From positions 1 to 64,000 of IMG/VR virus record IMGVR_UViG_3300034418_006582: a DNA stretch of 64,000 bases; one strand, written 5' to 3'. Positions 10,395 through 22,790 of this stretch are shown in pieces. The position numbers and the translations under genes are program-made. This DNA is from a virus. Every line of letters starts with the position of its first letter. Positions within the stretch are counted from its first letter, which is position 1. The notes under the pieces were generated by a model that had not been told where the DNA came from, searched no databases, and was given only the letters and a program-made list of their open reading frames with translations.

Positions 10395-10495
10395 AAATGT
10401 CAGACCAGTTTAGTAGACTGTTTAGTGACATGACCGAAGTATTCGGTGAATATGGTTGGAGAGAAATACCGACTAATAATATAGGAGAGAAAATA

Positions 10496-11269
10496 ATGAG
10501 CGAAGAAATAATTGTAGAGGCTGAGTCAACAGAAATTGTTGAATCACCTAACAATCAAATAACTACAAATATATTTGGAACTACAAATCCTGCTGACTTT
10601 GTTTCAAAATCACAGGAATATGCTAAAGCTCTAGTAGATGTAGTTGAAAACCAAAATTTATTTGCAGTAATACAAGGTAAAAAGTATGTAACATTTGAGG
10701 GGTGGCAATTCCTCGGATCTATGTTGCCTACTGCTATAACACCACAAACAGAGTGGACAACAGAATTAAGAGATGAAGCAACTGGCGAAACACTAGGATA
10801 TAAAACTCGTGTAGTAGCTAAAGATGTTAACGGAAACGATCGTGGCGCTGCTGAATCAGTATGTATGTATTCTGAAAGAAATTGGGCAGGCAAAGACGCT
10901 AACCACTTGATGTCAATGGCTCAAACTCGTGCAAGTTCTAAAGCACTTAGAATGGCTTTGTCATCAATTGTAAAGCTGGCTGGATATGAACCAACACCTA
11001 AAGAGGAAATGGATGGCATTACTGCTGAAAATTCATTTAGTAATACTGGATCAACTTCAGCACCTACTAACAATGGTGGTAAGGCGAGTGAAAAACAATT
11101 GAAGTTTGCTAAAGACATGATCCGAAAGAATGTTGATCATGAACTTGTGCAAAATGATTATTACAGACCAATATTAGAAAAAATTGCTACTGGCGATATT
11201 AGTGGCAAAGAAGTTTCTGCTGTTCTTGACTGGATAACAGGTAAAACTGATCAATTAATTACTTTCTAA
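10496..11269 (+). CDS. Conserved phage protein, possible recombination/ssDNA function
   Basis: About 257 aa from the ATG at 10496, which has AGGAGAG upstream; the frame stays open to an ATG at 10397 with no good site. The central signature M-A-Q-T-R-A-S-S-K-A-L-R-M-A-L followed by L-A-G-Y-E-P-T-P-K-E-E-M recalls a widespread phage and actinobacterial family often beside recombination genes. A C-terminal part (K-A-S-E-K-Q-L-K-F-A-K) looks like a DNA-binding tail. Annealing activity is only a guess. The stop lies in the inverted repeat. Confidence 0.55.
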   Translation: MSEEIIVEAESTEIVESPNNQITTNIFGTTNPADFVSKSQEYAKALVDVVENQNLFAVIQGKKYVTFEGWQFLGSMLPTAITPQTEWTTELRDEATGETLGYKTRVVAKDVNGNDRGAAESVCMYSERNWAGKDANHLMSMAQTRASSKALRMALSSIVKLAGYEPTPKEEMDGITAENSFSNTGSTSAPTNNGGKASEKQLKFAKDMIRKNVDHELVQNDYYRPILEKIATGDISGKEVSAVLDWITGKTDQLITF

Positions 11270-11348
11270 CAAATAGCAATACTGGATCTATAGAATCGGA
11301 AAACCCCTCTTTACGAGGGGCTTTCTTTATGTTGGACTTCTACCTTGT
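11266..11348. repeat. Right arm of exact 83-bp inverted repeat
   Basis: Exact reverse complement of 1-83. It includes the TAA of the preceding gene, the motif AAATAGCAATACTGGATC (also found in degenerate form at other cassette borders) and a terminator hairpin. It marks the border between the early block and the cassette array. Confidence 0.95.
11304..11332 (+). terminator. Terminator after rightward two-gene unit
   Basis: CCCCTC/GAGGGG hairpin with a five-base loop followed by a T-rich CTTTCTTTAT. Confidence 0.75.
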
Positions 11349-11386
11349 GAGAGAGTTGTAGAATTAACTGATCTTCATTATAAATG

Positions 11387-11470
11387 GGATTGAAAATATA
11401 TCATAATGATAAGTTAATTATTGTACTGCACGAATAGACTTTGGATTGAAAATGTGCTTTAATGATGAGT
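11387..11470. repeat. Dif-like site pair 1
   Basis: Two copies of arm GATTGAAAAT, six variable bases, arm TAATGATNAGT, at 11388 and 11444 (56 bp apart), central hexamers ATATCA and GTGCTT. Located between the early-block terminator and the terminator of the first cassette. Confidence 0.85.
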
Positions 11471-11510
11471 TTTGGTTGTGAAGATCGAAAAAGAATAATG
11501 ATCTAAAAGA

Positions 11511-11546
11511 GCAAAAAAAAAGAGGGCATTTCTGCCCCCTTTTATC
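11511..11546 (-). terminator. Cassette 1 terminator
   Basis: GGGC/GCCC-centred hairpin flanked by an A9 run (T-run on the minus strand). Confidence 0.75.
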
Positions 11547-11562
11547 TTTCAGTTTTTTTTAT

Positions 11563-12078
11563 TTATGCGTTAACAACCTCCTTTAAATTATTATTTAATG
11601 CTTCACTAATATTTATAGATATATAAAAAGCTGTGTGAAAATAATCCGTCATTGAGTCTGATTTGTCAAACCATAGATCACCAACGCCAGCATGGAATGG
11701 AGCAGTCTTTATTATTTCCTCCACTTTGTCCAGAAATTTGTTTTGTTCTGGTGTGAATAAAATATAGATTCTTTCAGCAATATCTATATGATGCTCAAAT
11801 TTGTCTGGATTTTGATCCATCCATCTCACCAACTCTGGATAAATTTCTGGTTTATATTCTCTAATTCTGTCAACAGCCAAACTGTATCTAGGCTTAAAGC
11901 TCTCTCTATACAATACCTCCATATCAGAGAATATATTTGTCCAATCTAGATCAGACTTTTTAACATCAACGCATAAGCGCATATGGTCTTGAATACGAAC
12001 ACCAAATTTAGAATTAGGAAATTCTTTCTTTAGTGCCTCTCGGATCGCTTTGGATTCCTCTTTTGTAATATATGCCAT
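11563..12078 (-). CDS. Cassette 1: LPD29-like domain protein
   Basis: 171 aa. The opening Y-I-T-K-E-E-S-K-A-I-R-E-A-L-K-K-E-F-P plus K-F-G-V and the late D-K-S-D-S-M-T-D-Y-F-H-T-A-F-Y resemble the small 'large polyvalent protein associated' (LPD29-type) domains of mobile elements. Biochemical role unknown. Single-gene unit with its own promoter and terminator. Confidence 0.5.
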   Translation of the reverse strand: MAYITKEESKAIREALKKEFPNSKFGVRIQDHMRLCVDVKKSDLDWTNIFSDMEVLYRESFKPRYSLAVDRIREYKPEIYPELVRWMDQNPDKFEHHIDIAERIYILFTPEQNKFLDKVEEIIKTAPFHAGVGDLWFDKSDSMTDYFHTAFYISINISEALNNNLKEVVNA

Positions 12079-12112
12079 TTTAAGCTCCTTTTATTTTCTA
12101 TTACTTCTAATA

Positions 12113-12140
12113 ATATTAACTGCCTATCAGATATATGCAA
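12113..12140 (-). promoter_or_regulatory. Cassette 1 promoter
   Basis: TTGCAT (reverse of 12135-12140), 16-bp spacer, TAATAT (reverse of 12113-12118). An imperfect TTGCATA-N7-TAGGCAG operator overlaps it. Leader box AGAAGTAATA and AAAGGAG follow. Confidence 0.8.
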
Positions 12141-12218
12141 GTATATTTTTAAAAAATATTTAAAGCTGGCCGTTGATCTTCTAGCAGTCATGGATCTAAT
12201 TCTGCGCTGCATAAAGTC

Positions 12219-12304
12219 GGATTGAAAACGAGCTTTAATGATAAGTCCATAATATGATCACCGATAGAAATGGGATTGAAAATCAGTATTAATGATAAGT
12301 TTTT
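12219..12304. repeat. Dif-like site pair 2
   Basis: Copies at 12220 (arm ends C instead of T) and 12274, 54 bp apart, central hexamers GAGCTT and CAGTAT. Lies between cassette 1 promoter and cassette 2 terminator. Confidence 0.85.
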
Positions 12305-12341
12305 ACTAGTAAGGCCAGAAACGGCTAACGATCAAAAAATG

Positions 12342-12376
12342 CAAAAAAAAAGAGGGACATTTGCCCCTCTTTTTCC
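12342..12376 (-). terminator. Cassette 2 terminator
   Basis: AGAGGG/CCCTCT-type hairpin with an A9 run on the plus strand, i.e. T9 after the leftward transcript. Confidence 0.8.
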
Positions 12377-12391
12377 GTAATCGAGATGAGG

Positions 12392-12565
12392 TTATGCGAT
12401 CATTGTAGGATCGTATTTCAAACCTAATTGTTTTCTACACTCATCGTCTAAGATCAAGATTGCATTTTCGCAACTATCACAAGTGATCACATTATTACGC
12501 TCTAAGTCAGTTGTTGTAAGAACTGCAAGCGTATCACAATTTTGACAGTCTATTTCAAAAAACAT
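12392..12565 (-). CDS. Cassette 2: small zinc-ribbon protein
   Basis: 57 aa with C-Q-N-C (7-10) and C-D-S-C (29-32), a classic two-knuckle zinc ribbon, then an acidic helix. Start overlaps the upstream stop. Function unknown. Confidence 0.65.
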   Translation of the reverse strand: MFFEIDCQNCDTLAVLTTTDLERNNVITCDSCENAILILDDECRKQLGLKYDPTMIA

Positions 12566-12726
12566 TAATCTACCCTTTCTGCTTTAACAATTTTGTAGCC
12601 CTCTTTATAAAAAAGATTTTCTACTGAATACATATCCAATTCCTCAATAGCGTTTTCGATACACTCAGCTTTATTGTTACCCTCGCCATAGATCTCTAAT
12701 TGAACTGTAAATTTATATTCTTTCAT
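12565..12726 (-). CDS. Cassette 2: small hypothetical protein
   Basis: 53 aa; strand (Y-K-F-T-V-Q-L-E-I-Y-G) then helix (A-I-E-E-L) layout. It overlaps both neighbours. Similar in plan to the early 48-aa protein at 9248. Confidence 0.6.
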   Translation of the reverse strand: MKEYKFTVQLEIYGEGNNKAECIENAIEELDMYSVENLFYKEGYKIVKAERVD

Positions 12727-13052
12727 TTTTTCACCTCAAAACGATCAAGACCATGAATAAAAGCGCCATTGTTTCCCTCAGGATCGCCCATTAATGTGAT
12801 AGTAATAGTTTTTCCTTTACTATCCTTTAATTCGATCACAGGAAAAGCAACATCATCAGACCAGTCTGTTTCCTCGTTGAGTTTCCATTGAGTCTGTACA
12901 AAATAAGTATCTTTAATTCTTAAGCCCTTAAGTTTTTCAAGATCCTTATAGTCATTTAAGTTATGATCAAGATCTGATCTTTTCACAACTTCTCGATAAT
13001 CAGTTGATCCAGTATCACTTTCGATATGATCAACATAATTTTCAGGTTTCAT
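12723..13052 (-). CDS. Cassette 2: hypothetical protein
   Basis: 109 aa, first gene of the leftward unit. Charged N-terminus and a beta-rich C-terminus (I-T-I-T-L-M-G-D-P). No family recognised. AAAGAGG precedes the ATG. Confidence 0.6.
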   Translation of the reverse strand: MKPENYVDHIESDTGSTDYREVVKRSDLDHNLNDYKDLEKLKGLRIKDTYFVQTQWKLNEETDWSDDVAFPVIELKDSKGKTITITLMGDPEGNNGAFIHGLDRFEVKK

Positions 13053-13080
13053 AATTTACCTCTTTCTGTATTACTTCTCA

Positions 13081-13119
13081 TAATTATACTTGCATAGTTG
13101 TGTTATGCAAGTATAATTA
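13081..13119. promoter_or_regulatory. Perfect 39-bp palindrome: mirrored divergent promoters
   Basis: Two exact 16-bp arms (13081-13096 and 13104-13119) around a 7-bp centre. Each strand reads TTGCAT, 16-bp spacer, TATAAT, giving identical divergent promoters for cassettes 2 and 3. The core TTGCATA-N7-TATGCAA is the shared operator of the array. Confidence 0.9.
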
Positions 13120-13151
13120 AAATTAGTAATAGAGAAAAGAAAGAGGACAAA

Positions 13152-13805
13152 ATGGAAAGAGTAGATCTTTTTAGAGAACCTATAAAAAAATGGGATATGG
13201 ATAAAGACACAAAAGCATTTTTAGTAGAAAATGATTTTGGTATCACTGACACTGGTGGTGGTTGTATCCATTTAACATACAAAGACTGGATCATAAACAA
13301 ATATGAATCAGTTGATTATGATGACATGTACGCACTTAACGAGATCACTTTAAACGATCTATGTATGTGGGGACAAATTTGGAACGATACTGGCGAGGAC
13401 ACATCGTTTTTGAACACTTTAGAAAGTGGAAAACAATTTGTTGATCAATACAAGTTAAGTGGAAGTCAATTTGCAAATAAAACAGATAAGCCGATCAATA
13501 GTTGGATCGAGGTATGGGAAAAAAGTGGTGGCGATCTAGATACTTACGAACAAAACTATTTTTTATGCCAGTGGGAAAACAGTTATTTGGTTTCTAGCGA
13601 AAAAGACTTAATCAAAAACTTTCCTCATGATGTACATGTAAAAGAGTTAGGTTGGTCAGGCTACAACAGAACTAACGGTAAATCTGTTGCAATAGATACT
13701 TTTTGGGACATGATCATGTTTATAAAAAAAGATAATCCTTTTGAGTGGACATTTTTTAGCGACAACATGAATATTACGCTCATGAGAGAAAGTGAAACAG
13801 AATAA
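13152..13805 (+). CDS. Cassette 3: hypothetical protein
   Basis: 217 aa from the ATG with AAAGAGG upstream. Acidic, Trp- and Asp-rich, no family recognised. It opens the only rightward unit of the array and is followed by a chain of overlapping small genes. Confidence 0.65.
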   Translation: MERVDLFREPIKKWDMDKDTKAFLVENDFGITDTGGGCIHLTYKDWIINKYESVDYDDMYALNEITLNDLCMWGQIWNDTGEDTSFLNTLESGKQFVDQYKLSGSQFANKTDKPINSWIEVWEKSGGDLDTYEQNYFLCQWENSYLVSSEKDLIKNFPHDVHVKELGWSGYNRTNGKSVAIDTFWDMIMFIKKDNPFEWTFFSDNMNITLMRESETE

Positions 13806-13897
13806 TGGTTGTTAAAGACAACGAGTGGTTAGATCATTGCACATGCGATGATCTAACTGCGAGAAATTGTATATGCGACTTAAACGAGGGGGAATAA
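13805..13897 (+). CDS. Cassette 3: 30-aa Cys-rich peptide
   Basis: H-C-T-C and C-I-C motifs; start overlaps the preceding stop, and its stop overlaps the next start. Probably a tiny metal-binding protein. Confidence 0.5.
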   Translation: MVVKDNEWLDHCTCDDLTARNCICDLNEGE

Positions 13898-14034
13898 TGG
13901 CGAATCGACATAGTTGGCAAGATATGGCTGACTTAACACACAAAACACAAGTAGAGGAATTTAATTTTTGTTTATGCGAGGAACAAGAAGTATTCCCTTA
14001 CGATGATTGCCCAAAAGAAAGTGTAGGGAAGTAA
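13897..14034 (+). CDS. Cassette 3: 45-aa Cys-containing peptide
   Basis: F-C-L-C-E-E-Q...D-D-C-P echoes the Cys spacing of the previous peptide. AGGGGG upstream; overlaps both neighbours by one base pair of TAATG. Confidence 0.5.
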   Translation: MANRHSWQDMADLTHKTQVEEFNFCLCEEQEVFPYDDCPKESVGK

Positions 14035-14159
14035 TGGAACAAATAATAAATCTATTACAAAAAGTATTAGACATATCTAAACAACTAGACAGTAATGATG
14101 AATTGTCATTAACAACTGACTTAGAAGAAGATATTGAAATATTTATAAAGGATAATTAA
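14034..14159 (+). CDS. Cassette 3: 41-aa acidic helical peptide
   Basis: Predicted amphipathic helix (I-I-N-L-L-Q-K-V-L-D-I) then acidic tail. TAATG overlap upstream with GGGAAG. Confidence 0.45.
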   Translation: MEQIINLLQKVLDISKQLDSNDELSLTTDLEEDIEIFIKDN

Positions 14160-14160
14160 A

Positions 14161-14295
14161 GTGAAAAGAAAATTAATTAAATTAGTTATCAAAATATTGA
14201 TAGAAAGATCAGATCTAGATCGTGATGATCTACACGAGATCTCAAAATATGCCGATAACATTATTGTAAGTAAATTTATAAGAGGTAAAAATTGA
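14161..14295 (+). CDS. Cassette 3: 44-aa basic peptide
   Basis: GTG start; basic hydrophobic N-terminus (K-R-K-L-I-K-L-V-I-K-I-L-I) then charged helix. Could associate with membrane. Confidence 0.45.
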   Translation: MKRKLIKLVIKILIERSDLDRDDLHEISKYADNIIVSKFIRGKN

Positions 14296-14342
14296 TTTAT
14301 ATAATTCAAATTATATTGGAAAAACTTAAGGGCAAGAAGTAA
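14292..14342 (+). CDS. Cassette 3: 16-aa micropeptide
   Basis: TTG start with AGAGG upstream; M-I-Y-I-I-Q-I-I-L-E-K-L-K-G-K-K. It closely resembles the 14-aa peptide at 19812-19856, also last before a terminator, which argues both are translated. Confidence 0.4.
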   Translation: MIYIIQIILEKLKGKK

Positions 14343-14364
14343 AGCTGACACCATAAGTTTTGAG

Positions 14365-14393
14365 AGAGGGGCTTACAAGCCCCTCTTTTTTTA
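14365..14393 (+). terminator. Cassette 3 terminator
   Basis: AGAGGGGC/GCCCCTCT hairpin followed by T7. Confidence 0.85.
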
Positions 14394-14397
14394 TTTG

Positions 14398-14482
14398 AGA
14401 TTGAAAATTTACATTAATGATAAGTCTTTTATTTGATCATGGTAAAAATCGAGATTGAAAATGAGTATTAATAATGAGTTTT
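14398..14482. repeat. Dif-like site pair 3
   Basis: Copies at 14399 and 14453 (54 bp apart), central hexamers TTACAT and GAGTAT, between two convergent terminators, so not near any promoter. Confidence 0.85.
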
Positions 14483-14500
14483 TCATAGGATCATCGAAAC

Positions 14501-14536
14501 ACAAAAAAAAATGGGGATCCTAAGATCCCCATTTGT
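14501..14536 (-). terminator. Cassette 4 terminator
   Basis: ATGGGGATC/GATCCCCAT hairpin with an A9 run on the plus strand. Confidence 0.8.
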
Positions 14537-14548
14537 ATTGTTTGATTG

Positions 14549-15115
14549 CTAAATTTTTAAACGATCTTTTAACTGATGATCGGTATAGATCTCACCAGTC
14601 TCAAAATTCACACGATCATAATTGTATAAGTGATTAAACAAATCGACTTTTGATTTGTCTAACTCTTTAACCATATGATCATAGATCCATTGAAAATTGA
14701 TCAATAGAAAATTATGAAAATCAAGATTGCCAGTTGTTGATCTCTCATGCTTGATCCATTTAGATCTGTAACTCTCTAAATGGCAATTTGAGTATGATAC
14801 ATCGAGGTTAAGACATTTACTACAACCTAACAACAATGCAATAGTCATGACATTTGTATAAGTGTCTTTATTAACTCTTATATCGTAGATCGTATCGAAT
14901 TGATCTCTATAGTCATTTTTTTCACCATTATTTTTACCGATACAATAATGAGTATAAGAGGGATAGATCTTGCCATAAATGTTATTAACTTTTATTGGTA
15001 AATAATCTTGTCTCTTATAATCATCGAATCTTAGATCAACGATGATTGGCTTAAAGTTTTCTAAAACATTTAAGATCATCGCATATTGATCTTTAGTTAA
15101 ATTATGATCGATCAT
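14549..15115 (-). CDS. Cassette 4: hypothetical protein
   Basis: 188 aa, Tyr/Asp/Asn-rich, two Cys (L-G-C-S-K-C). No family recognised. The DNA here is exceptionally GATC-rich. Overlaps the upstream gene by 4 bp. Confidence 0.6.
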   Translation of the reverse strand: MIDHNLTKDQYAMILNVLENFKPIIVDLRFDDYKRQDYLPIKVNNIYGKIYPSYTHYCIGKNNGEKNDYRDQFDTIYDIRVNKDTYTNVMTIALLLGCSKCLNLDVSYSNCHLESYRSKWIKHERSTTGNLDFHNFLLINFQWIYDHMVKELDKSKVDLFNHLYNYDRVNFETGEIYTDHQLKDRLKI

Positions 15116-15456
15116 GATAAATTGATCTTATCTAAGATCTCATTGATCTTGTTTGCTTTAACTGGATCTTTAAAGACATCGTAATTGATCGCTTTAGAAA
15201 AACCAAAGGGATCATTTTGCGATAGATCCTCTTTTAAGATCTCAATATCCGTATCACTTAAAGTTAGATCCTCTATGATCGTTTTATTGATTAATTCAAA
15301 ACTAAACCAATTATCGATCTTTTGATCCTCTAACTCTTTTAGTAATAATTCTCTAGCAATAGTTTTACCTTGTTTTGTTGCAACAGATACAACCTTTTCG
15401 GTCTTATCCATTAACTTAACGAGATAGTCATATTGCCATAAGTTTTTATTGGGCAT
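15112..15456 (-). CDS. Cassette 4: hypothetical protein
   Basis: 114 aa, helical and charged, with Leu/Glu/Lys/Asp repeats; no family recognised. GATC occurs about every 25-30 bp in its DNA. AAAGAGG precedes the ATG. Confidence 0.6.
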   Translation of the reverse strand: MPNKNLWQYDYLVKLMDKTEKVVSVATKQGKTIARELLLKELEDQKIDNWFSFELINKTIIEDLTLSDTDIEILKEDLSQNDPFGFSKAINYDVFKDPVKANKINEILDKINLS

Positions 15457-15467
15457 AATTTCCTCTT

Positions 15468-15506
15468 TCTCTTAATTACTAATTTAAGCATATCACACAT
15501 CGGCAA
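15468..15506 (-). promoter_or_regulatory. Cassette 4 promoter region and leader box
   Basis: TTGCCG (reverse of 15501-15506) with the operator half TATGC downstream and the TTAGTAATTAA leader box before GAGAAAGAGG. The -10 is not obvious. Confidence 0.5.
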
Positions 15507-15551
15507 TTTATAAAAGTCAATAAATATAAACTTTTGGTTATGGTGATCGGT

Positions 15552-15600
15552 TAAGGTCTAAATTTAAAATCGCTTAAAACGGCTTAAAACGGCTTGTTTA
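15552..15600. repeat. Spacer repeat block, copy A
   Basis: A stretch with CGCTTAAAACGGCTTAAAA and flanking AAGGTC; a homologous block lies at 18480-18530. Both sit just left of a dif-like site. Confidence 0.65.
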
Positions 15601-15608
15601 AAAAATCG

Positions 15609-15640
15609 AGATTGAAAATCAGCCTTAATGATAAGTTTTT
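15609..15640. repeat. Dif-like site, single
   Basis: Arm GATTGAAAAT at 15610, hexamer CAGCCT, arm TAATGATAAGT. No partner 54 bp away. Confidence 0.8.
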
Positions 15641-15707
15641 TAATGGATACTCAAAAAATGTGTTTTAAAATGAATCTCTTAAAATGGATCTAAAGAGGAT
15701 ATAAAGA

Positions 15708-15738
15708 AAGAGGATCCAGTAAAACTGGATCCTCTTAT
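15708..15738 (-). terminator. Cassette 5 terminator
   Basis: Near-perfect 13-bp stem AAGAGGATCCAGT/ACTGGATCCTCTT. Confidence 0.75.
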
Positions 15739-15756
15739 TTGATTAGTAACCGATGT

Positions 15757-16008
15757 TTAAAACGGATCTGGTATTCTCAATTCATTTTGGAAGTATTCTA
15801 AATTTGCTTGAATTGTACTAGCTCTTTTAAAAGTCAATTCATTAAAATTAGAATTAAAATTTTCAAAGACTTCGATCATATGCCGTTCTAATACTGATAA
15901 TTCATAGATCATTTTGAATTTAGTATCTAGATCATAATTTCTAAATTTGATCGCTGATACTCTAACCTTTAGAATTTTTGCTATCGCTATAAAATGTTTT
16001 TTAGTCAT
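15757..16008 (-). CDS. Cassette 5: hypothetical protein
   Basis: 83 aa, all-helical in appearance, with hydrophobic heptads; no family recognised. Confidence 0.55.
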   Translation of the reverse strand: MTKKHFIAIAKILKVRVSAIKFRNYDLDTKFKMIYELSVLERHMIEVFENFNSNFNELTFKRASTIQANLEYFQNELRIPDPF

Positions 16009-16010
16009 TT

Positions 16011-16250
16011 TTAACCTCTTTCTATTTTTCTATATGTATCTAAAGAATTGTAATTTTCTTTAATTAATTTGCTAACCTTAACAACTCTATAAACTCTTTT
16101 ACATGTGATTGGATCACTTATAAACATTTTTACAGAATTGCACTCACCTATTGAGTTATGATCAGCACAACCGTCAGCTTTCTTTTCTAAAATGAAAAAA
16201 AACTGATCACCGTATTTTTTTCCTATTTGATCTAAAGTCATAAACTTCAT
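16011..16250 (-). CDS. Cassette 5: hypothetical protein
   Basis: 79 aa. C-A-D-H...C-N...C resembles a loose metal site. AAAGAGGTG precedes the ATG. Confidence 0.55.
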   Translation of the reverse strand: MKFMTLDQIGKKYGDQFFFILEKKADGCADHNSIGECNSVKMFISDPITCKRVYRVVKVSKLIKENYNSLDTYRKIERG

Positions 16251-16265
16251 TGATCACCTCTTTCT

Positions 16266-16302
16266 TTTCGATTACTGATCTAAGCATATCACAACTATGC
16301 AA
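16266..16302 (-). promoter_or_regulatory. Cassette 5 promoter region and leader box
   Basis: TTGCAT (reverse of 16297-16302), operator TTGCATA-N7-TATGCTT, and leader box CAGTAATCGA before AAAGAGG. The -10 is unclear. Confidence 0.6.
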
Positions 16303-16369
16303 TTAATTCACTTAAAAAATAATTATTTATTTGAGTAAAAGAGGATCTAAAGAGGATCTAGAAAAAACG

Positions 16370-16455
16370 CGATTGAAAATCTGTCATAATGATAAGTTTT
16401 TTAATTGATAAGCGAAATAATCGAGATTGAAAATGGCCTTTAATGATAAGTTTTT
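16370..16455. repeat. Dif-like site pair 4
   Basis: Copies at 16371 and 16425 (54 bp apart), hexamers CTGTCA and GGCCTT. Confidence 0.85.
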
Positions 16456-16545
16456 TATTTGAGGCTCGAAATTAAGATATTTTAGATTTAGCTGAAGTTG
16501 ATCCAGTATTGCCAAATTTAATATTGCGTTGAGAGATCCGTGGCA

Positions 16546-16575
16546 TAAAAAAAGTGGGGCATAAAGCCCCACTCA
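16546..16575 (-). terminator. Cassette 6 terminator
   Basis: GTGGGGC/GCCCCAC hairpin with A7 on the plus strand. Confidence 0.8.
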
Positions 16576-16593
16576 ATCGATATTACTTTATTT

Positions 16594-16941
16594 TTAACTG
16601 TGACAAGTTACGACAAAAGCACATAATCTTTCTTTTATCGCTAAGTCCTCAGGCTTAGTACCTCGCAAGAGCTTATCCAACTCAGTCAAATCACCGTACT
16701 TTCCTCTGAAGTCGATATAAATTTGCTCATCTGCCTCATCGCCTAGAGCTTTAAACAGACTTTCCAAACTGTCTATTGCTTTCAACTCAACAGATTTTCT
16801 TTCAGGTATTTCTATACTGTCATATTGTCCACCGTACTCAGTTTGTTTTTCGTACCAGTCAAGAATATTGCATGGCAAAAAGCCATTTTTAACACTCCAA
16901 ACATGGTCGACAGTAGAAACACCAATGCCGTTTGTCCACAT
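16594..16941 (-). CDS. Cassette 6: hypothetical protein
   Basis: 115 aa, single-gene unit. W-T-N-G-I-G-V-S opening, acidic middle (D-E-A-D-E-Q). No family recognised. Confidence 0.6.
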   Translation of the reverse strand: MWTNGIGVSTVDHVWSVKNGFLPCNILDWYEKQTEYGGQYDSIEIPERKSVELKAIDSLESLFKALGDEADEQIYIDFRGKYGDLTELDKLLRGTKPEDLAIKERLCAFVVTCHS

Positions 16942-16977
16942 TTTATTTTTCCTTTTTTTAGTCGATTACTAATTTTA

Positions 16978-17005
16978 ATTATAATTGCCTTTTACTTATA
17001 TGCAA
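16978..17005 (-). promoter_or_regulatory. Cassette 6 promoter
   Basis: TTGCAT (reverse of 17000-17005), 16-bp spacer, consensus TATAAT (reverse of 16978-16983); TTAGTAATCGA leader box and AAAAAAGG follow. Confidence 0.85.
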
Positions 17006-17085
17006 TAACATTTTTGCAATTAAAGATCCGTGGATAAAATGCAGAGTTAGATCTAATTTTGCCTTGGATCTTTAACTGCATAAAA

Positions 17086-17114
17086 AAAAGAGGTTGGACA
17101 AACCAACCTCTTTT
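17086..17114 (-). terminator. Cassette 7 terminator
   Basis: AAGAGGTTGG/CCAACCTCTT hairpin with an A-run. No dif-like site accompanies this border. Confidence 0.8.
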
Positions 17115-17131
17115 AATTTTGGCAGAGCTGC

Positions 17132-17710
17132 TTAAGCTATTTCAATAGCCTCGCCCTCTAAAGTCCAAACAGTTTCGCCAGTATCTAGGTCGCCGAAATT
17201 TTCAAAATACCACTCAGTCCAAAACCAGTTATCAAGCCCACCACCAAAGTTCTTTTCGCCAGTTTTAGTATCAATAAGCCTGTGCCACTCTTTTGTATTC
17301 ATTTCTATGCCACCGAACTCATCAGCCCTTTCAATTAAAGAGATGATGAAGTTTCTATTCTCAACTGTTTCCTCATTTAGCAGAGTTAGATCTAAATTAG
17401 GCAAGTGCATATCATGGCAATTACAGTTATCATACTTTTCGCAATCTCTCACTTCACACTCTCTTGAGCAAATCACACTGATATCGCCAATTAAGTAACC
17501 CTCATTTATGCCTTTACCACAATCATCGACTTCGCAATGTCTAGGGTAAACTGTTAAGGTTTCAACTTCTTTTAAACAAGTATCGCACCAAGTTTTGCCA
17601 TTTCCAACTGGTTCGCCTACCTCGGATCTATATAAGCCAACCCAGTATTGCTTGCTTAATGTTCCGAAACTTTTGCAAGTTCCACATATCTCAACGGTTT
17701 TTTCGTCCAT
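17132..17710 (-). CDS. Cassette 7: Cys-rich hypothetical protein
   Basis: 192 aa. At least ten Cys in the first 100 residues (C-G-T-C, C-D-T-C, C-x4-C, C-x3-C, C-D-K-Y-D-N-C-N-C-H) suggest several zinc sites; the C-terminal half is Trp/Glu/Asp-rich. No family recognised. Start overlaps the upstream stop. Confidence 0.6.
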   Translation of the reverse strand: MDEKTVEICGTCKSFGTLSKQYWVGLYRSEVGEPVGNGKTWCDTCLKEVETLTVYPRHCEVDDCGKGINEGYLIGDISVICSRECEVRDCEKYDNCNCHDMHLPNLDLTLLNEETVENRNFIISLIERADEFGGIEMNTKEWHRLIDTKTGEKNFGGGLDNWFWTEWYFENFGDLDTGETVWTLEGEAIEIA

Positions 17711-17958
17711 TATTTATTCCTCTCTATACAAGTTTCACACTCAAACTCAGGACCACTACACCATGAGCAGTAACACTCATCGAATAAGCCCTCAGCATGT
17801 TGGCAACAAGTTGCACTATCAAAAGCATGAGTTTCCAATTCAACTGGATAAGTCTTAAACATATATCTGTCTAATACTTTTCCAGTAAACTCCCAAACAC
17901 CTAAAAGCAAAAATGCAATCACGGTTATTGAGAATATAAGAAAAAATGCGTTTTCCAT
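17710..17958 (-). CDS. Cassette 7: single-TM protein with Cys-rich tail
   Basis: 82 aa. A membrane helix at about residues 4-24 (F-F-L-I-F-S-I-T-V-I-A-F-L-L-L-G) and a C-terminal domain with eight Cys (C-C-Q-H...C-Y-C-S-W-C...C-E-T-C). Cytoplasmic zinc domain anchored to membrane, role unknown. Confidence 0.6.
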   Translation of the reverse strand: MENAFFLIFSITVIAFLLLGVWEFTGKVLDRYMFKTYPVELETHAFDSATCCQHAEGLFDECYCSWCSGPEFECETCIERNK

Positions 17959-17987
17959 TTTTTATCCTTTCAATCGATTACTAATTT

Positions 17988-18016
17988 AATTTTGATCACT
18001 TTTTGCTATTTTGTCA
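17988..18016 (-). promoter_or_regulatory. Cassette 7 promoter
   Basis: Consensus TTGACA (reverse of 18011-18016), 17-bp spacer, CAAAAT; TTAGTAATCGA leader box follows. No TTGCATA operator, so regulation may differ. Confidence 0.65.
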
Positions 18017-18391
18017 AGAATAGAAATAGAACTCATAATTATCTCGAAGTTCTTTGTAGTCTTTCTTTTCCTGACAATCATGATCTCTGTCTGCAAAATA
18101 CAAAGTTGGAGTTCTGCAAAAGTCACAGACATGATGATGAATTGCAAAAGAAAAATCGTCACGAGTTGTTATTGTAAAAGCCAACCAACCCAAGTCAGTA
18201 TAAACTTTTATATCTACACCTGGGAAACTATGATTTTTTAAATAGTGTTCTGCACTAAAAACAAGTTGTTCCAAATGTTCTGCACTTTTCAACTTTGTAT
18301 CATCAACAGAATATTTTTCAATATAAGTTTCTTGTGCAAATGAGTTATCGCCTTTAACTCCGATTTTAAATTTATATTTTCTTTGTTTCAT
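18014..18391 (-). CDS. Cassette 8: hypothetical protein
   Basis: 125 aa with beta-rich N-terminus and C-D-F-C...C near residues 91-109. Ends within the promoter of cassette 7. AAAGAGG before ATG. Confidence 0.6.
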   Translation of the reverse strand: MKQRKYKFKIGVKGDNSFAQETYIEKYSVDDTKLKSAEHLEQLVFSAEHYLKNHSFPGVDIKVYTDLGWLAFTITTRDDFSFAIHHHVCDFCRTPTLYFADRDHDCQEKKDYKELRDNYEFYFYS

Positions 18392-18412
18392 TTTTACCTC
18401 TTTATCGATTAC

Positions 18413-18440
18413 TACTTATTAGAATAACACTATTTTGCAA
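18413..18440 (-). promoter_or_regulatory. Cassette 8 promoter
   Basis: TTGCAA (18435-18440), 16-bp spacer, TAAGTA; GTAGTAATCGA leader box follows. Weaker match than others. Confidence 0.5.
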
Positions 18441-18479
18441 TTAAAGATCCGTGTTATCTATAAATATCTGTGCAGTCCA

Positions 18480-18530
18480 GTCAAGGTCCAAAAATTCTAA
18501 ACGCTTAAAACGGCTTAAAAGTGCCTGTTT
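18480..18530. repeat. Spacer repeat block, copy B
   Basis: Matches the block at 15552-15600 through CGCTTAAAACGGCTTAAAA; lies just left of a dif-like pair. Confidence 0.65.
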
Positions 18531-18581
18531 TTTTCAAGTTTTTACAAAATTAGCAATCCTGGATCAAATTCAGCAAATTTG

Positions 18582-18667
18582 CGATTGAGAATTAGTCTTA
18601 ATGATTAGTCATTTATTTGATAATTAAAACAATTGAGATTGAAAATGTATGTTAATGATGAGTTTTT
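18582..18667. repeat. Dif-like site pair 5
   Basis: Copies at 18583 (GATTGAGAAT) and 18637, 54 bp apart, hexamers TAGTCT and GTATGT. Confidence 0.85.
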
Positions 18668-18705
18668 TATTTGATACTCAGAATTGAGCCATGGATCTTT
18701 TAGTG

Positions 18706-18742
18706 CAAAAAAAAAGCGAGGTCGAAACCTCGCTCTTTTTTA
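18706..18742 (-). terminator. Cassette 9 terminator
   Basis: AGCGAGGT/ACCTCGCT hairpin with A9 on the plus strand. Confidence 0.8.
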
Positions 18743-18753
18743 TTTAATGCGAC

Positions 18754-19164
18754 CTATAACATATCAGCAATTTGGTTTTCATATTCAGAATAAAAAGTTT
18801 CAAATTCCTCATTGGTCAATTTATTTTCATGACTTAACGACATGCAAGACTTTTGTATTAAATCCGTAATTGAATTTCGGTTTGCACTTAAGTTAGGATT
18901 GTAACAATCAAGCCAAAACAAAAAATGGTCTGTCCTCATTTTGTAAGTTTCGACTATTTCATTTTTGGCTAAAGAATACTTTTGGCATAAAGTCCAAAAG
19001 TCTGGCTCAGGTTGAGTTAAACAATCAAACAACCATAAATCATAACTATGAGTTTCTGAATTATGTGCCTCAATATCTCTACTGTCAAACATAAGAATAT
19101 AGTTTGACATGTCTAAATTAGGCACAACAAACAACTGTTTCATATTGTCCCAAATATTTTCCAT
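18754..19164 (-). CDS. Cassette 9: hypothetical protein
   Basis: 136 aa, Trp/Phe/Asp-rich, four scattered Cys. No family recognised. Confidence 0.6.
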   Translation of the reverse strand: MENIWDNMKQLFVVPNLDMSNYILMFDSRDIEAHNSETHSYDLWLFDCLTQPEPDFWTLCQKYSLAKNEIVETYKMRTDHFLFWLDCYNPNLSANRNSITDLIQKSCMSLSHENKLTNEEFETFYSEYENQIADML

Positions 19165-19174
19165 TATTCCCCCT

Positions 19175-19456
19175 TTAACTTTTGTAATAGTTATTTATTG
19201 CGTTTTGCATTACGCTATCTTTTACAAAAAATTCATCAACTTCTACATTGTCAACAAACTTTTGTACATTGTAATTAAATTCCCAGTATTTTTTTTCCTC
19301 AAATGAAGTATGGTATTCATCATATTGGATTAACCATATGGTCTTACTACTACCTGGGATTATTTGTAAATCACGAAAACATAATTCCTCAAATAAAATC
19401 CAGCAATCGTTTTCAAAATTAACTGGATTTTTTTTAGTGTATTTTGGCTTAGCCAT
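19175..19456 (-). CDS. Cassette 9: hypothetical protein
   Basis: 93 aa; basic start, then W-I-L-F-E-E-L-C-F-R-D-L. No family recognised. First gene of its unit; AAAGAGG precedes the ATG. Confidence 0.6.
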   Translation of the reverse strand: MAKPKYTKKNPVNFENDCWILFEELCFRDLQIIPGSSKTIWLIQYDEYHTSFEEKKYWEFNYNVQKFVDNVEVDEFFVKDSVMQNAINNYYKS

Positions 19457-19489
19457 TTTTTACCTCTTTTTAATCGATTACTAATAACC

Positions 19490-19517
19490 ATTATAGTTGC
19501 ATATTTGTCTTATGCAA
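19490..19517 (-). promoter_or_regulatory. Cassette 9 promoter with perfect operator
   Basis: TTGCAT (reverse of 19512-19517), 16-bp spacer, TATAAT (reverse of 19490-19495). Exact TTGCATA-N7-TATGCAA operator at 19497-19517. Confidence 0.88.
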
Positions 19518-19627
19518 TTCAAAAATCTCTGAGATCCGTGTAAAAAAAAAATTGATCACAAATAGCAAAACTGGATCCGTGTTTTGTAAAACTGGCCAAA
19601 TTGCTGCAAAGCTGACGAAACAAAACG

Positions 19628-19712
19628 AGATTGAAAATGTCTTATAATGATTAGTCCTTTAAGTGAAACTAGAGAGAATTGAGATTGAAAATGTGTATTA
19701 ATAATAAGTTTT
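19628..19712. repeat. Dif-like site pair 6
   Basis: Copies at 19629 and 19683 (54 bp apart), hexamers GTCTTA and GTGTAT. Confidence 0.85.
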
Positions 19713-19763
19713 AAATTTGAAGATCGAAACTTAGATTTGTTTAAATACTGGTAAAAAAGAGAC

Positions 19764-19797
19764 AAAAAAAAAGAGGGCTTTAAACCCTCTTTTTTAA
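19764..19797 (-). terminator. Cassette 10 terminator
   Basis: AAGAGGG/CCCTCTT hairpin flanked by an A9 run. Confidence 0.8.
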
Positions 19798-19811
19798 TTT
19801 TATTTGATTAA

Positions 19812-19856
19812 TTAGCGCTTTAATTTCTCAAATATGATTTCTACAATATATTTCAT
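19812..19856 (-). CDS. Cassette 10: 14-aa micropeptide
   Basis: M-K-Y-I-V-E-I-I-F-E-K-L-K-R, with AGAGGAG upstream and ATG overlapping the previous stop (ATGA). Homologous to the 16-aa peptide at 14292-14342 in cassette 3. Confidence 0.45.
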   Translation of the reverse strand: MKYIVEIIFEKLKR

Positions 19857-20095
19857 AATCTCCTCTCTTTTAATCGTTTTACTATTTCCTCGTATCTTTC
19901 ATGGTTTAAACCAACTTCATGATCTTCTAATTCTTTAGCACCAACTTCATCATTCCATTCATAAAGGGCATCTAATAGATTTTCATAAATATTTGGTCTT
20001 CTATATCTTGTGATAATTTTGGTTAACATGTCGAAGATCATCCCCAACATGAAACCAAAACCAAACATCAAAATTAAACCGTTAACAGATAGCAT
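19853..20095 (-). CDS. Cassette 10: single-TM protein
   Basis: 80 aa from ATG at 20095 (GGGAGA upstream; a TTG at 20110 is also open). Membrane helix L-I-L-M-F-G-F-G-F-M-L-G-M-I-F at residues 7-21, then an acidic cytoplasmic tail. Role unknown. Confidence 0.6.
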   Translation of the reverse strand: MLSVNGLILMFGFGFMLGMIFDMLTKIITRYRRPNIYENLLDALYEWNDEVGAKELEDHEVGLNHERYEEIVKRLKERRL

Positions 20096-20097
20096 GT

Positions 20098-20442
20098 TTA
20101 TATCTCCCAATTTTGTCTAATATCTTCTTTTTCTTTACCTTTTGCACTATCCCAAGAATTAAAGATCTCCAGTTCTTTCTCACTTAATAACTCAAGGGCA
20201 AACGATAAAGATTCTTTTATTGTTTCTATTTCTTTAGAAAATTTATTTAATTGATTTCCTAAATACTTAGCGCCATTATAAAATCCTGCGTCATACTCAT
20301 TTGTTGAATCACAATCCATCACATACTCGAGTACTTCATCAAAATTTCTTAAACCCATTCCACTTAAATCGGTAAAATTTTCACCTTCAAAATCTTCTCT
20401 AATTTCTTGAATTAGTTCTTCGATCTTCTCGTTTAATGTCAT
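20098..20442 (-). CDS. Cassette 10: coiled, acidic hypothetical protein
   Basis: 114 aa, Glu/Lys/Leu-rich helices. The tail overlaps the membrane-protein gene's alternative start. No family recognised. Confidence 0.6.
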   Translation of the reverse strand: MTLNEKIEELIQEIREDFEGENFTDLSGMGLRNFDEVLEYVMDCDSTNEYDAGFYNGAKYLGNQLNKFSKEIETIKESLSFALELLSEKELEIFNSWDSAKGKEKEDIRQNWEI

Positions 20443-20594
20443 TCTTCCTCCCCTATAACTATAGTATCAGTTTCCGATTCACAATTATGGCAGTACTCCT
20501 CCCCAGCACCGTCTATAATTGTGTCATCGTTTAAATTTTGCCATATATCCGTATAAACATCTTTCGAGCCACACCCACTGCAAACATACGGCAT
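20439..20594 (-). CDS. Cassette 10: small zinc-ribbon protein
   Basis: 51 aa; C-S-G-C (5-8) and C-H-N-C (35-38), a zinc ribbon. ATGA overlap with the next gene. Ends I-G-E-E-E. Confidence 0.65.
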   Translation of the reverse strand: MPYVCSGCGSKDVYTDIWQNLNDDTIIDGAGEEYCHNCESETDTIVIGEEE

Positions 20595-20595
20595 T

Positions 20596-20862
20596 TTATT
20601 GTCTATCTTTCTTTAATTTGATTTCATTAATAATACTTTTGCTACCGTTCCACGCTCCAGTTGTTATTAATTCAACTTCAAACCCCAAACCCTCTAACCA
20701 ACTATTGATTTCATTTTCAATAGCTGTCGCAATATTAAAGGGATGATCTTCGACTTCATAATCTTCATTGTGTTGAAGATCATGAACTTCTAAATCTACA
20801 TTTTCATCCAGTTTTAAAACTAGCTTATATTCAAAATGTAGGTTATCTAATTTGATTAGCAT
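20596..20862 (-). CDS. Cassette 10: hypothetical protein
   Basis: 88 aa, beta-rich N-terminus (L-D-N-L-H-F-E-Y-K-L-V-L-K-L). First gene of the 19812-20862 unit, with AAAGAGG before ATG. Confidence 0.6.
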   Translation of the reverse strand: MLIKLDNLHFEYKLVLKLDENVDLEVHDLQHNEDYEVEDHPFNIATAIENEINSWLEGLGFEVELITTGAWNGSKSIINEIKLKKDRQ

Positions 20863-20890
20863 ATTTACCTCTTTTTCGATTACTTATTTA

Positions 20891-20919
20891 ATTATTGATC
20901 AACTTCTGATTTATGTCAA
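20891..20919 (-). promoter_or_regulatory. Cassette 10 promoter
   Basis: TTGACA (reverse of 20914-20919), 17-bp spacer, AATAAT; AAGTAATCGA leader box follows. It overlaps the end of the upstream small gene. Confidence 0.75.
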
Positions 20920-21063
20920 CAACCTTTTTAAATTATTTTCCAAACGGTCTAAACGGTCTAATAGTTCTTTATGTTGTAACCTTTTAAAATCAATATAAAG
21001 ATAAATTAAACCAACTAAAGAAGCTAATATCAATAAACTTAAAAGCAATTCTAAAAGATTCAT
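20911..21063 (-). CDS. 50-aa membrane protein with coiled tail
   Basis: TM helix (L-L-E-L-L-L-S-L-L-I-L-A-S-L-V-G-L-I-Y-L) then L-D-R-L-D-R-L-E-N-N-L coiled coil. Holin-like size, but function unknown. ATGA overlap with the upstream gene. Confidence 0.55.
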   Translation of the reverse strand: MNLLELLLSLLILASLVGLIYLYIDFKRLQHKELLDRLDRLENNLKRLLT

Positions 21064-21251
21064 TGATGGAGACCACTTCGACAAAATGCCACTTTATAAT
21101 TAAACTTGCCCTCTATTGAGATCTCCAATTCATAAGAACATATTGGGCAATATTCAGCAAAGAGATTTATATCTTTTCTAGTTCTATTTTTAACTTGCTT
21201 ATTTCCTACTCTTTTTCGGTCAATAAGTCTTTTAATGTTTCTCATCATCAT
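21060..21251 (-). CDS. Small basic zinc-knuckle protein
   Basis: 63 aa (three possible Met starts). Basic N-terminus and C-P-I-C...C near the end. Upstream of the 50-aa membrane protein; only a short, possibly leaderless start is visible. Confidence 0.5.
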   Translation of the reverse strand: MMMRNIKRLIDRKRVGNKQVKNRTRKDINLFAEYCPICSYELEISIEGKFNYKVAFCRSGLHQ

Positions 21252-21341
21252 TAGTTACTAGTGACAAGTTATTAAAAATTTGACCATTTTTTAAAAAAAA
21301 GAATTAGATCATGTGAATTAAAAAAGTAAACAAAAAAAACG

Positions 21342-21373
21342 AGATTGAAAATGAGTCTTAATGATGAGTTTTT
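21342..21373. repeat. Dif-like site, single
   Basis: Arm GATTGAAAAT at 21343, hexamer GAGTCT, arm TAATGATGAGT. Confidence 0.8.
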
Positions 21374-21427
21374 TATAGGATCATAGGAAATGCTGTCAGA
21401 TTATTAAGAGCTAAAAAAAGACAATAA

Positions 21428-21456
21428 AAAAAGTGGGGTATGAAACCCCACTTTAA
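21428..21456 (-). terminator. Cassette 11 terminator
   Basis: AAGTGGGG/CCCCACTT hairpin with A7 on the plus strand. Confidence 0.8.
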
Positions 21457-21475
21457 AAATAAATTAAATTATTTT

Positions 21476-21841
21476 TTAAATTAACTTTGATTGATCATCT
21501 AAGAAACAACTATTTAAAAAACCGATCATTAATCTTTGATCCGTCTTAGTAGTTGCAACATTAACAAACGGCATAAACCAATCTTGATATTGAGCCTGAA
21601 TATCTTTAATCAAACCATTTTCATCAGTTGACCAGATCCAGCGATAAGCACCACCACCCCACGAGATCAAAATGCCCTCGATATAACCAGCCTTTACATC
21701 TTGTCTAGTTAATCTAGTGTGATCAAGTTTTTCCAAAGCGTACCATTTACCGTTTTCTTTTATTTCTTTTGCTAATTCTTTCAAATAACTTTTGTGGTAT
21801 TTGGTTCCCTCAACATGTAATTTTTCTAGTGTTTCAGCCAT
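21476..21841 (-). CDS. Cassette 11: hypothetical protein
   Basis: 121 aa from the ATG overlapping the upstream stop (TAATG, GGGGGTGG before it). W-G-G-G-A-Y-R-W-I-W segment. No family recognised. Confidence 0.6.
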   Translation of the reverse strand: MAETLEKLHVEGTKYHKSYLKELAKEIKENGKWYALEKLDHTRLTRQDVKAGYIEGILISWGGGAYRWIWSTDENGLIKDIQAQYQDWFMPFVNVATTKTDQRLMIGFLNSCFLDDQSKLI

Positions 21842-22191
21842 TATTTCCACCCCCTAAATGTGCTATAACTTTGCCAAAATTCAGTAGTTAGATCGATTAA
21901 TATTTTTCCATTTTCATCAAAAATATTTGTTTCTAACATTGAATTTAAAACTTCAGAAAAATTATTTTTTGACAATAATTCTTTAGCAAGTTTCTTGTTT
22001 TTATTTGCTTGAATATGTGAAAACATTAACGCAACTATTTCATGTGTTGCGCCATATTTTTCCATAAGATCCAAAGTCATATTTATATAGTGCTTAAAAG
22101 TTATATCCTTGTTTTTAAATTTACTTTCAATAACATAAAGCTGGTACAGTCTGACTTGATCGCCAGTCAAACCAATATTTAATTCAGTCAT
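21841..22191 (-). CDS. Cassette 11: hypothetical protein
   Basis: 116 aa, helical, no family recognised. Starts a few bases after the upstream membrane-protein stop. Confidence 0.6.
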   Translation of the reverse strand: MTELNIGLTGDQVRLYQLYVIESKFKNKDITFKHYINMTLDLMEKYGATHEIVALMFSHIQANKNKKLAKELLSKNNFSEVLNSMLETNIFDENGKILIDLTTEFWQSYSTFRGWK

Positions 22192-22336: not shown

Positions 22337-22369
22337 TTTTTCCTCTTTCTTTTTCGATTACTAATTTTA

Positions 22370-22740: not shown

Positions 22741-22790
22741 TTTCCTAAAGCTCTTAGATCTACTAGTAGAATAGAAGTATCTTGCGACTT

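What the first reader, a model, noticed from the sequence alone, without database searches (positions are those of the whole stretch)
11387..21373. Fourteen 28-bp dif-like sites (11+6+11) punctuate a phage cassette array
Seen: 14 copies of a 10-11-bp arm (A/G/C)GATTGAAAAT and an 11-bp arm TAATGATNAGT, always with exactly six bases between. The six bases differ in every copy (ATATCA, GTGCTT, GAGCTT, CAGTAT, TTACAT, GAGTAT, CAGCCT, CTGTCA, GGCCTT, TAGTCT, GTATGT, GTCTTA, GTGTAT, GAGTCT). All face the same way and all lie between transcription units. Known: XerC/XerD dif and plasmid pdif sites have 11-bp arms around a 6-bp centre that varies among pdif sites. From memory, the right arm matches the XerD arm (TTATGTTAAAT of E. 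coli) at about 8 of 11 positions. Inference: the accessory region may be built of cassettes moved by host Xer recombinases, an integron-like system I have not seen described in a phage. Alternative: binding sites of a silencing repressor, like the stoperators of cluster A mycobacteriophages.
Basis: partly seen in the sequence, partly recalled or inferred. Interest (0 to 1): 0.92.

Follow-up and report, generated by a model that had tools for sequence, protein, structure and literature searches.

The report
Phage operon-boundary DNA repeat family
A family of uncultured viruses that probably infect actinobacteria places the same short two-part DNA signal, almost always pointing the same way, at the boundaries between its fast-changing accessory gene units; it looks like a docking site for an unidentified DNA-binding protein rather than the bacterial dif recombination site it was first taken for.

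Summary
In detail: 14 sites, one strand, 0.05 expected by chance, none elsewhere in the 78-kb record. The Xer/dif reading is not supported. The 28-bp frame is not the real unit: in this phage and its nearest relative (also 14 sites) conservation spans about 53 bp, the arms show no inverted symmetry, and the six-base centre is constrained. Resemblance to host-class dif is weak, and no tyrosine recombinase was found in 12 related records. Five more distant relatives carry 10-14 copies each. Across about 90 copies in seven phages the invariant core is GATTGAAAAT-N6-TAATG, with spacing six in 67 of 68 cases and 1-6 tandem copies per junction. The arrays lie beside a recombination/replication block, at operon boundaries, 64% just downstream of a leftward terminator. 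Gene content between elements turns over heavily, but resolvable W/R breakpoints fall at ORF or terminator edges, not in the sites. Best reading: asymmetric binding sites of a phage DNA-binding protein that insulates or silences early operons (stoperator-like). The cognate protein is unproven; a conserved MerR-type HTH beside the array is one candidate. Side finding: the neighbouring 11-15-kb block apparently inverts.

The parts
11382..11490 (+). Junction J1: two elements (G1 at 11388 and 11444), between convergent units; the junction nearest the core block
12214..12320 (+). Junction J2: two elements (12220, 12274)
14393..14499 (+). Junction J3: two elements (14399, 14453), between convergent terminators
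15604..15656 (+). Junction J4: one element (15610); the second copy of the relative's pair aligns to a degraded sequence at about 15660-15700
16365..16471 (+). Junction J5: two elements (16371, 16425)
18577..18683 (+). Junction J6: two elements (18583, 18637)
19623..19729 (+). Junction J7: two elements (19629, 19683)
21337..21389 (+). Junction J8: one element (21343)
11518..11543 (-). Leftward intrinsic terminator next to J1. The equivalents at J2 to J8 are 12345-12376, 14509-14534, 15708-15736, 16552-16574, 18715-18734, 19767-19795 and 21430-21454. The one at 17086-17114 has no element after it
11563..22191 (.). Accessory operons punctuated by the elements: mostly leftward, with one rightward unit at 13098-14277
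10155..10394 (+). 79-aa MerR-type/HTH_17 DNA-binding protein, a candidate cognate binder (unproven); conserved beside the SSAP-like gene in all seven records whose contig covers this place
10397..11269 (+). 290-aa protein, by my reading of its sequence a single-strand-annealing-type recombination protein; no Pfam or PDB match
11266..11348 (.). 83 bp with terminator, an exact inverted repeat of window 1-83; inner edge of the apparently invertible block
1..83 (.). Other copy of the inverted sequence, at the contig end
23452..23970 (+). Terminase small subunit, right-hand border of the array in W, R, G259, G261 and G262
40423..40716 (+). WhiB-family protein, which points to an actinobacterial host

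Best explanation
The sites are asymmetric, bipartite recognition sequences of a sequence-specific DNA-binding protein, probably phage-encoded. The core is GATTGAAAAT, exactly six loosely constrained bases, then TAATG, with a lineage-specific extension to ~53 bp in this phage and its closest relative. They mark the boundaries of the early accessory operons beside the core block, mostly just beyond leftward terminators, in 1-6 tandem copies. The most likely action is that bound protein insulates or silences the operons by blocking leftward transcription across boundaries, and so also shields the adjacent replication/recombination block. In mode of action this is like actinobacteriophage stoperators. 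Shown: the motif, its exact spacing, one-orientation bias, operon-boundary placement, cross-phage conservation, absence from host-class genomes and absence of Xer features. Inferred: protein binding. Inferred more weakly: blocking of transcription, and any assignment of the cognate protein; a 79-aa MerR-type HTH next to the array is one candidate.
For: The six-base hole is kept at exactly 6 in 67 of 68 core matches. Exact GATTGAAAAT occurs 72 times in the arrays on one strand, 0 times on the other strand there and 0 times in 296 kb outside. Plain homology linkers would not keep a variable hole of fixed length. Columns predicted from W alone, including -5, -1, 37, 38, 46 and 47 outside the 28-mer, hold at 96-100% in R while the flanks do not. 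Five further phages carry arrays. 34 of 53 junctions have a leftward terminator within 150 bp, against 9% of random array positions. Copy number varies (1-6) with spacings of 22, 24, 26, 29, 38 and 53-59 bp, which suits operator clusters. There is no RNA structure and no Rfam match. Stoperators are asymmetric, intergenic, one-orientation sites (PMC6550527, PMC9283540). A small HTH protein is conserved beside the array in all seven records that cover the place.
Against: No binding or transcription data exist. Elements also lie between divergent genes in G261, G262 and G263, where there is no leftward unit to stop. A rightward gene in those phages is flanked by same-orientation elements on both sides. 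No immunity repressor or integrase was recognised, so a lysogeny-type silencer is not indicated. The HTH assignment rests on genomic proximity and a moderate-confidence model (pLDDT 80; best PDB match E 0.04); its fold family also includes terminase DNA-binding domains, and a 79-aa protein would have to oligomerise to cover ~53 bp. One of nine leftward terminators in the array has no element.
Confidence: 0.5

Rival explanations
1. Cassette-boundary sites for recombination not involving Xer: an unrecognised recombinase, or annealing by the neighbouring SSAP-type protein, moves operons as units bounded by elements in a fixed orientation (an integron-like or linker-like system).
For: Gene content between elements is almost completely replaced between phages while order at the ends is kept. 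An ArdC/M78-like gene is bounded by same-orientation elements on both sides in G261, G262 and G263 with different neighbours. In G258 versus G263 two homology blocks start or end at an element. The junction nearest the core block has the most copies (3-6) in the five distant relatives. An SSAP-type gene sits beside the array.
Against: The resolvable W/R changes break at the terminator or stop codon, not in the site. Several G258/G263 breakpoints are hundreds of bases from any element. Genes also change orientation and operon. No PF00589 recombinase was found. Tandem copies 22-38 bp apart make poor recombination sites. An exact six-base variable hole is not what annealing needs.
Confidence: 0.18
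2. Xer/dif-like sites recombined by host XerC/XerD, as first proposed.
For: Two arms around exactly six bases; 8 of 11 matches to the XerD arm; same orientation; cassette-like region.
Against: No dyad symmetry (5.4 of 28 nt, below shuffled). The conserved unit runs well beyond 28 bp. The right arm is reduced to TAATG in relatives. There is no similar site in 42 low-GC genomes of the presumed host order beyond background and none of the family-wide pattern in 395 genomes of the class at the tested stringency. Sites are tandem; pdif modules alternate in orientation and recombine when spacers match (PMC13141974), and no two copies at one junction share a centre.
Confidence: 0.06
3. Architectural, replication, packaging or inversion-related sites, for example anchoring of the genome end, regulation of the flip of the adjacent block, or organising of nucleoprotein.
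For: Nearly fixed orientation along the axis from the core block to terS in all seven phages. The array lies between an apparently invertible block and terS, where several contigs begin. The largest tandem cluster in the distant relatives is at the edge of that block.
Against: The sites are spread over 8-10 kb and tied to operon junctions and terminators, which a single anchor or fork-barrier role would not need.
Confidence: 0.14
4. Promoters of an unrecognised phage RNA polymerase or sigma factor.
For: Asymmetric, repeated, intergenic.
Against: Transcripts reading along the element would run antisense to most units. J1 and J3 lie between convergent 3' ends. The spacing does not fit -35/-10, and the operons show sigma-70-like boxes of their own on inspection, though the generic scan is no better than shuffles.
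Confidence: 0.06

Closest known systems
Stoperators of cluster A mycobacteriophages (L5/TipsytheTRex repressor sites)
   Same: Asymmetric, many copies, intergenic, one orientation in an actinobacterial phage (PMC6550527, PMC9283540)
   Different: 13-14 bp rather than a 21-53 bp bipartite site; spread over the genome rather than confined to the accessory array; no repressor identified here; tandem copies at one junction
SPBRE elements bound by MrpR of Bacillus phage SPbeta
   Same: Phage repeated intergenic element, recognised by a repressor with a tyrosine-recombinase fold, so recombinase-like anatomy need not mean recombination (PMC10516654)
   Different: 15-bp motif; no tyrosine-recombinase-type protein found here by sequence
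SAS/ESAS repeats of cluster K mycobacteriophages
   Same: Asymmetric repeats, mostly one orientation, restricted to the non-structural half, phage-specific (PMC3203893)
   Different: SAS lie a few bases before start codons; these lie at operon boundaries, often at 3' ends
dif/pdif sites of XerCD
   Same: Two blocks around six bases; right block 8/11 like the XerD arm
   Different: No palindromicity; conserved unit not 28 bp; same-orientation and tandem; no Xer-type gene; no host counterpart found
BldC direct-repeat sites of actinobacteria
   Same: Variable numbers of head-to-tail repeats read directionally by a small MerR-type wHTH (PMC5859096); the candidate HTH has this general fold
   Different: 9-bp AATT-type repeats; the phage core does not have that period; binding not shown
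Integron cassette arrays (attC)
   Same: Gene units punctuated by one-orientation elements near 3' ends
   Different: No integrase found, no palindromic attC-like folding, units carry their own terminators

Membership tests
dif/pdif (XerCD) | 11-6-11 with partly palindromic arms | tested here: not met
   5.4/28 palindromic nt vs 8.4 shuffled and 10-16 in four host-class dif sites; literature 16.3
dif/pdif (XerCD) | Sequence conservation limited to the 28-mer | tested here: not met
   Conserved -5 to +47 in W/R; only GATTGAAAAT-N6-TAATG in relatives
dif/pdif (XerCD) | Resemblance to the host chromosomal dif | tested here: not met
   12/22 arm matches at best to class dif; no excess in 42 low-GC genomes. 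The host itself is inferred, not known, and its own dif was not found
dif/pdif (XerCD) | Recombination crossovers within the centre | tested here: inconclusive
   W/R breakpoints lie elsewhere; no reads or near-identical strains available
pdif modules | Modules flanked by inversely oriented sites | tested here: not met
   All 14 same strand; nearly all in the other five phages; definition
Stoperators | Asymmetric repeated sites in intergenic regions, one orientation relative to transcription | tested here: met
   (predominantly; a few copies in G261 and G262 are reversed)
Stoperators | Distributed across the genome including the early promoter operator | tested here: not met
   Confined to the array
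Stoperators | Bound by the phage immunity repressor and block elongation | not testable with these tools
   No repressor recognised; needs binding and reporter assays
Integron cassette array | Tyrosine-type integron integrase | tested here: not met
   PF00589 absent in 12 related records, some of them fragments
Integron cassette array | attC palindromic single-strand fold | tested here: not met
   Folding no better than shuffles
SPBRE/MrpR | Cognate repressor with tyrosine-recombinase fold | tested here: inconclusive
   None by sequence; a fold-only relative could be missed
BldC-type binder | Small MerR-type wHTH encoded near the sites | tested here: inconclusive
   HTH_17 protein conserved beside the array; fold matches weak (E 0.04; BldC chains at rank 26 and below)

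The most novel reading that the evidence does not exclude
A phage-borne cassette-array system without a recognisable integrase: accessory operons captured, ordered and exchanged between actinobacterial phages at a fixed-orientation bipartite element. The cluster next to the SSAP-type gene would serve as the entry point, and the adjacent invertible core block would be part of the same machinery.
Probability: 0.13. Interest if true: 0.9.

Novelty: new variant of a known kind. Interest (0 to 1): 0.6.

Why it matters
This is a repeat family, apparently undescribed, shared by at least seven phages of a lineage that probably infects abundant low-GC actinobacteria. It delimits, operon by operon, the fastest-changing part of the genome, so it gives a sequence handle for finding accessory operons in these phages. 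If it is regulatory, it is a new stoperator-like boundary system with a searchable 21-bp core. If it is recombinational, it would explain how such phages swap accessory genes. The adjacent apparently invertible 11-15-kb replication/methyltransferase block is a second testable oddity.

Tried and rejected
Xer/dif: symmetry, extent, host comparison, recombinase search and orientation all fail.

Centre diversity as a sign of anti-recombination selection: 14 distinct centres expected with P = 0.46. Centres at one junction are no more and no less alike than others.

16-bp internal direct-repeat period: not significant.

RNA element: no structure, no Rfam match.

Sigma-70 promoter: no fit.

Strict 3'-end rule: holds in W (8 of 9 leftward terminators) but broken by divergent contexts in relatives.

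One-sided flank similarity as a breakpoint detector: swamped by shared terminator and A-tract sequence, so not used.

The 290-aa protein as an MrpR-like repressor: its sequence looks like a single-strand annealing protein instead; this is my reading, no library matched it.

Searches that led nowhere: cassette proteins in phage and viral collections found only the one near relative; a looser DNA pattern gave single, chance-level hits; genome-wide pattern scan gave none; pattern in eight further contigs of the nearest relatives gave none, those placed lying right of terS or, for G007, not clearly covering the array.
Full report
Names. W is the window's phage record (G000, 78,156 bp, extension held as L011). 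R is G001 (IMGVR_UViG_3300017727_000091, 30,385 bp). G258-G263 are six more distant relatives. Position 1 is the first G of GATTGAAAAT. J1-J8 are the eight junctions of W.

THE OBSERVATION. A weight-matrix scan of the whole record finds these 14 at 42 bits or more and nothing else above 5. They fall at eight junctions: six pairs 54-56 bp apart and two singles. J4, a single in W, is a pair in R. R's second copy aligns to a degraded stretch in W, so singles may be decayed pairs.

THE REAL UNIT. R was found by pattern scan and also has 14 sites in a syntenic array. Columns chosen from W alone outside the 28-mer (-5, -1, 37, 38, 46, 47) hold at 96-100% in R, while the immediate flanks have no conserved columns. 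The centre is constrained: position 14 of the element is always T or C. Fourteen distinct centres are not unusual (P = 0.46). There is no inverted axis better than permuted columns and no convincing direct period.

A WIDER FAMILY. The 290-aa protein beside the array (10397-11269) led to six more records. A mismatch scan showed variant sites in three of them, and the full sequences revealed arrays in five: G258, G259, G261, G262 and G263, 10-14 copies each. Over 88 copies in seven phages the invariant part is GATTGAAAAT-N6-TAATG, usually preceded by ACGA or ATGG. In the five distant phages it is followed by an A-rich tract. Spacer length is six in 67 of 68 matches. Exact GATTGAAAAT occurs 72 times in the arrays on one strand, never on the other strand there, and never in the remaining 296 kb. 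Tandem spacings include 22, 24, 26, 29, 38 and 53-59 bp. In each of the five distant relatives the junction nearest the core block has the most copies (3-6). A few copies point the other way (G261, G262). 2.06 Mb of fetched sequence showed no other clusters.

WHERE IT SITS. In the phages whose contigs cover the place, the array starts beside a block with the SSAP-type gene, an HTH gene, a replication initiator, a ParB-like protein and methyltransferases, in one or the other orientation. It ends at terS where the contig reaches that far. Four contigs from other samples begin at terS, which suggests, without proving, that a physical genome end lies there. Most units run leftward. In W 8 of 9 leftward terminators are followed by elements. 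Over all phages 34 of 53 junctions have a leftward terminator within 150 bp on the right, versus 9% of random array positions. Elements also occur between convergent genes (J1, J3 and others) and, in relatives, between divergent genes. They therefore mark unit boundaries rather than promoters. No RNA fold is seen.

TEST OF THE XER READING. Palindromic nucleotides in the 28-mer: 5.4 in W and R, 8.4 in shuffles, 10-16 in four dif sites recovered from Acidimicrobiia genomes; published mean 16.3 (PMC2731167). Arm matches to those dif sites reach 12 of 22 (2% of shuffles do as well), with the resemblance confined to the right arm, and that arm shrinks to TAATG in relatives. Forty-two ~1-Mb genomes of the low-GC order give 15 near-matches against 12 for the reversed control. 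The stricter family-wide pattern gives none in 395 genomes of the class. The host assignment itself is an inference from WhiB, GC content near 34% and the published GC of Actinomarinales (PMC7771536). No Phage_integrase domain is found in 12 records at E up to 1, although some are fragments. pdif modules need alternating orientation and matching spacers (PMC13141974); here orientation is uniform and no two copies at one junction share a centre.

TEST OF THE CASSETTE READING. Content turns over strongly: homologues are scattered among different operons and sometimes inverted. One rightward gene (ArdC/M78-like) is bounded by same-orientation elements on both sides in three phages with different neighbours, which looks like a portable unit. 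Where DNA homology is good enough to place breakpoints, however, W and R differ by ORFs between a retained promoter region and a retained terminator-plus-element junction. Homology runs through J4 and its terminator to about the stop codon (15761). G258 versus G263 gives mixed results, with two block ends at elements and several far away. This does not show that crossovers occur in the sites.

MECHANISM. A variable hole of fixed length inside an otherwise invariant asymmetric sequence, with variable numbers of tandem copies, is the signature of a protein-binding site. It is not what a homology linker or an RNA would show. Together with boundary placement this favours a protein that insulates or silences operons, as stoperators do (PMC6550527, PMC9283540). 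The MrpR/SPBRE case shows that a recombinase-like fold can serve as such a repressor (PMC10516654). The best available candidate binder is the 79-aa HTH at 10155-10394. It is present beside the SSAP-type gene in all seven records covering the place, and its model resembles MerR-type wHTH domains including BldC. BldC reads head-to-tail repeats of varying number (PMC5859096). This assignment is by proximity only, and the same fold occurs in terminase DNA-binding domains.

SIDE FINDING. W 1-83 is an exact inverted repeat of 11266-11348. G261 (79 bp), G259 (43 bp) and G260 (123 bp) show the same at their contig ends. These lengths look like assembler k-mer sizes (my knowledge), so they probably mark graph merge points where both ends of the block join the same junction. 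R and G262 carry the block in the other orientation. An 11-15-kb invertible block beside the array is the simplest reading; reads would settle it.

Noticed in passing
window 1-83 and 11266-11348; also G259 1-43, G260 1-123, G261 1-79 (oriented): Exact inverted repeats of assembler-k-mer length join both ends of the replication/methyltransferase/SSAP block to the same junction, and R and G262 have the block reversed: an apparently invertible 11-15-kb segment next to the array.
   Followed up: partly
window 656-2877 (-) and 24154-27455 (+): Six N6/N4-type methyltransferase paralogues in two clusters, plus two further related methyltransferases (24154-25229) and a larger one at 27452-29062; one of them sits in the other cluster in R.
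   Followed up: no
contigs G002-G005 versus window 23452: Contigs from four other samples begin within about 25 bp of the terS start codon, suggesting a physical genome end or packaging site there.
   Followed up: partly
window 16522, 17012, 18433, 19530 (+) and 17060, 18690 (inverted): A second repeat, AAGATCCGTG / GGATCTTTWRYTGCA, recurs near operon junctions and could form a long imperfect hairpin at 17011-17084.
   Followed up: no
window 13867-14034 (+) versus G001 12184-12315 (-): A small gene, 78% identical over 36 residues, lies in different operons and opposite orientations in the two close relatives.
   Followed up: no
upstream of most leftward units, e.g. 16945-17015, 19457-19525, 22337-22407: Conserved promoter/leader box (reverse strand TTGCAT...TATAAT, then ATTAAAATTAGTAATCGA) shared by the accessory operons.
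   Followed up: no
window 22478-22834 and G001 14389-14732: Conserved non-coding stretch right of the array with the partial motif AATCGCGATTG, also partly conserved in G258, G259, G262 and G263; could be an origin or control region.
   Followed up: no
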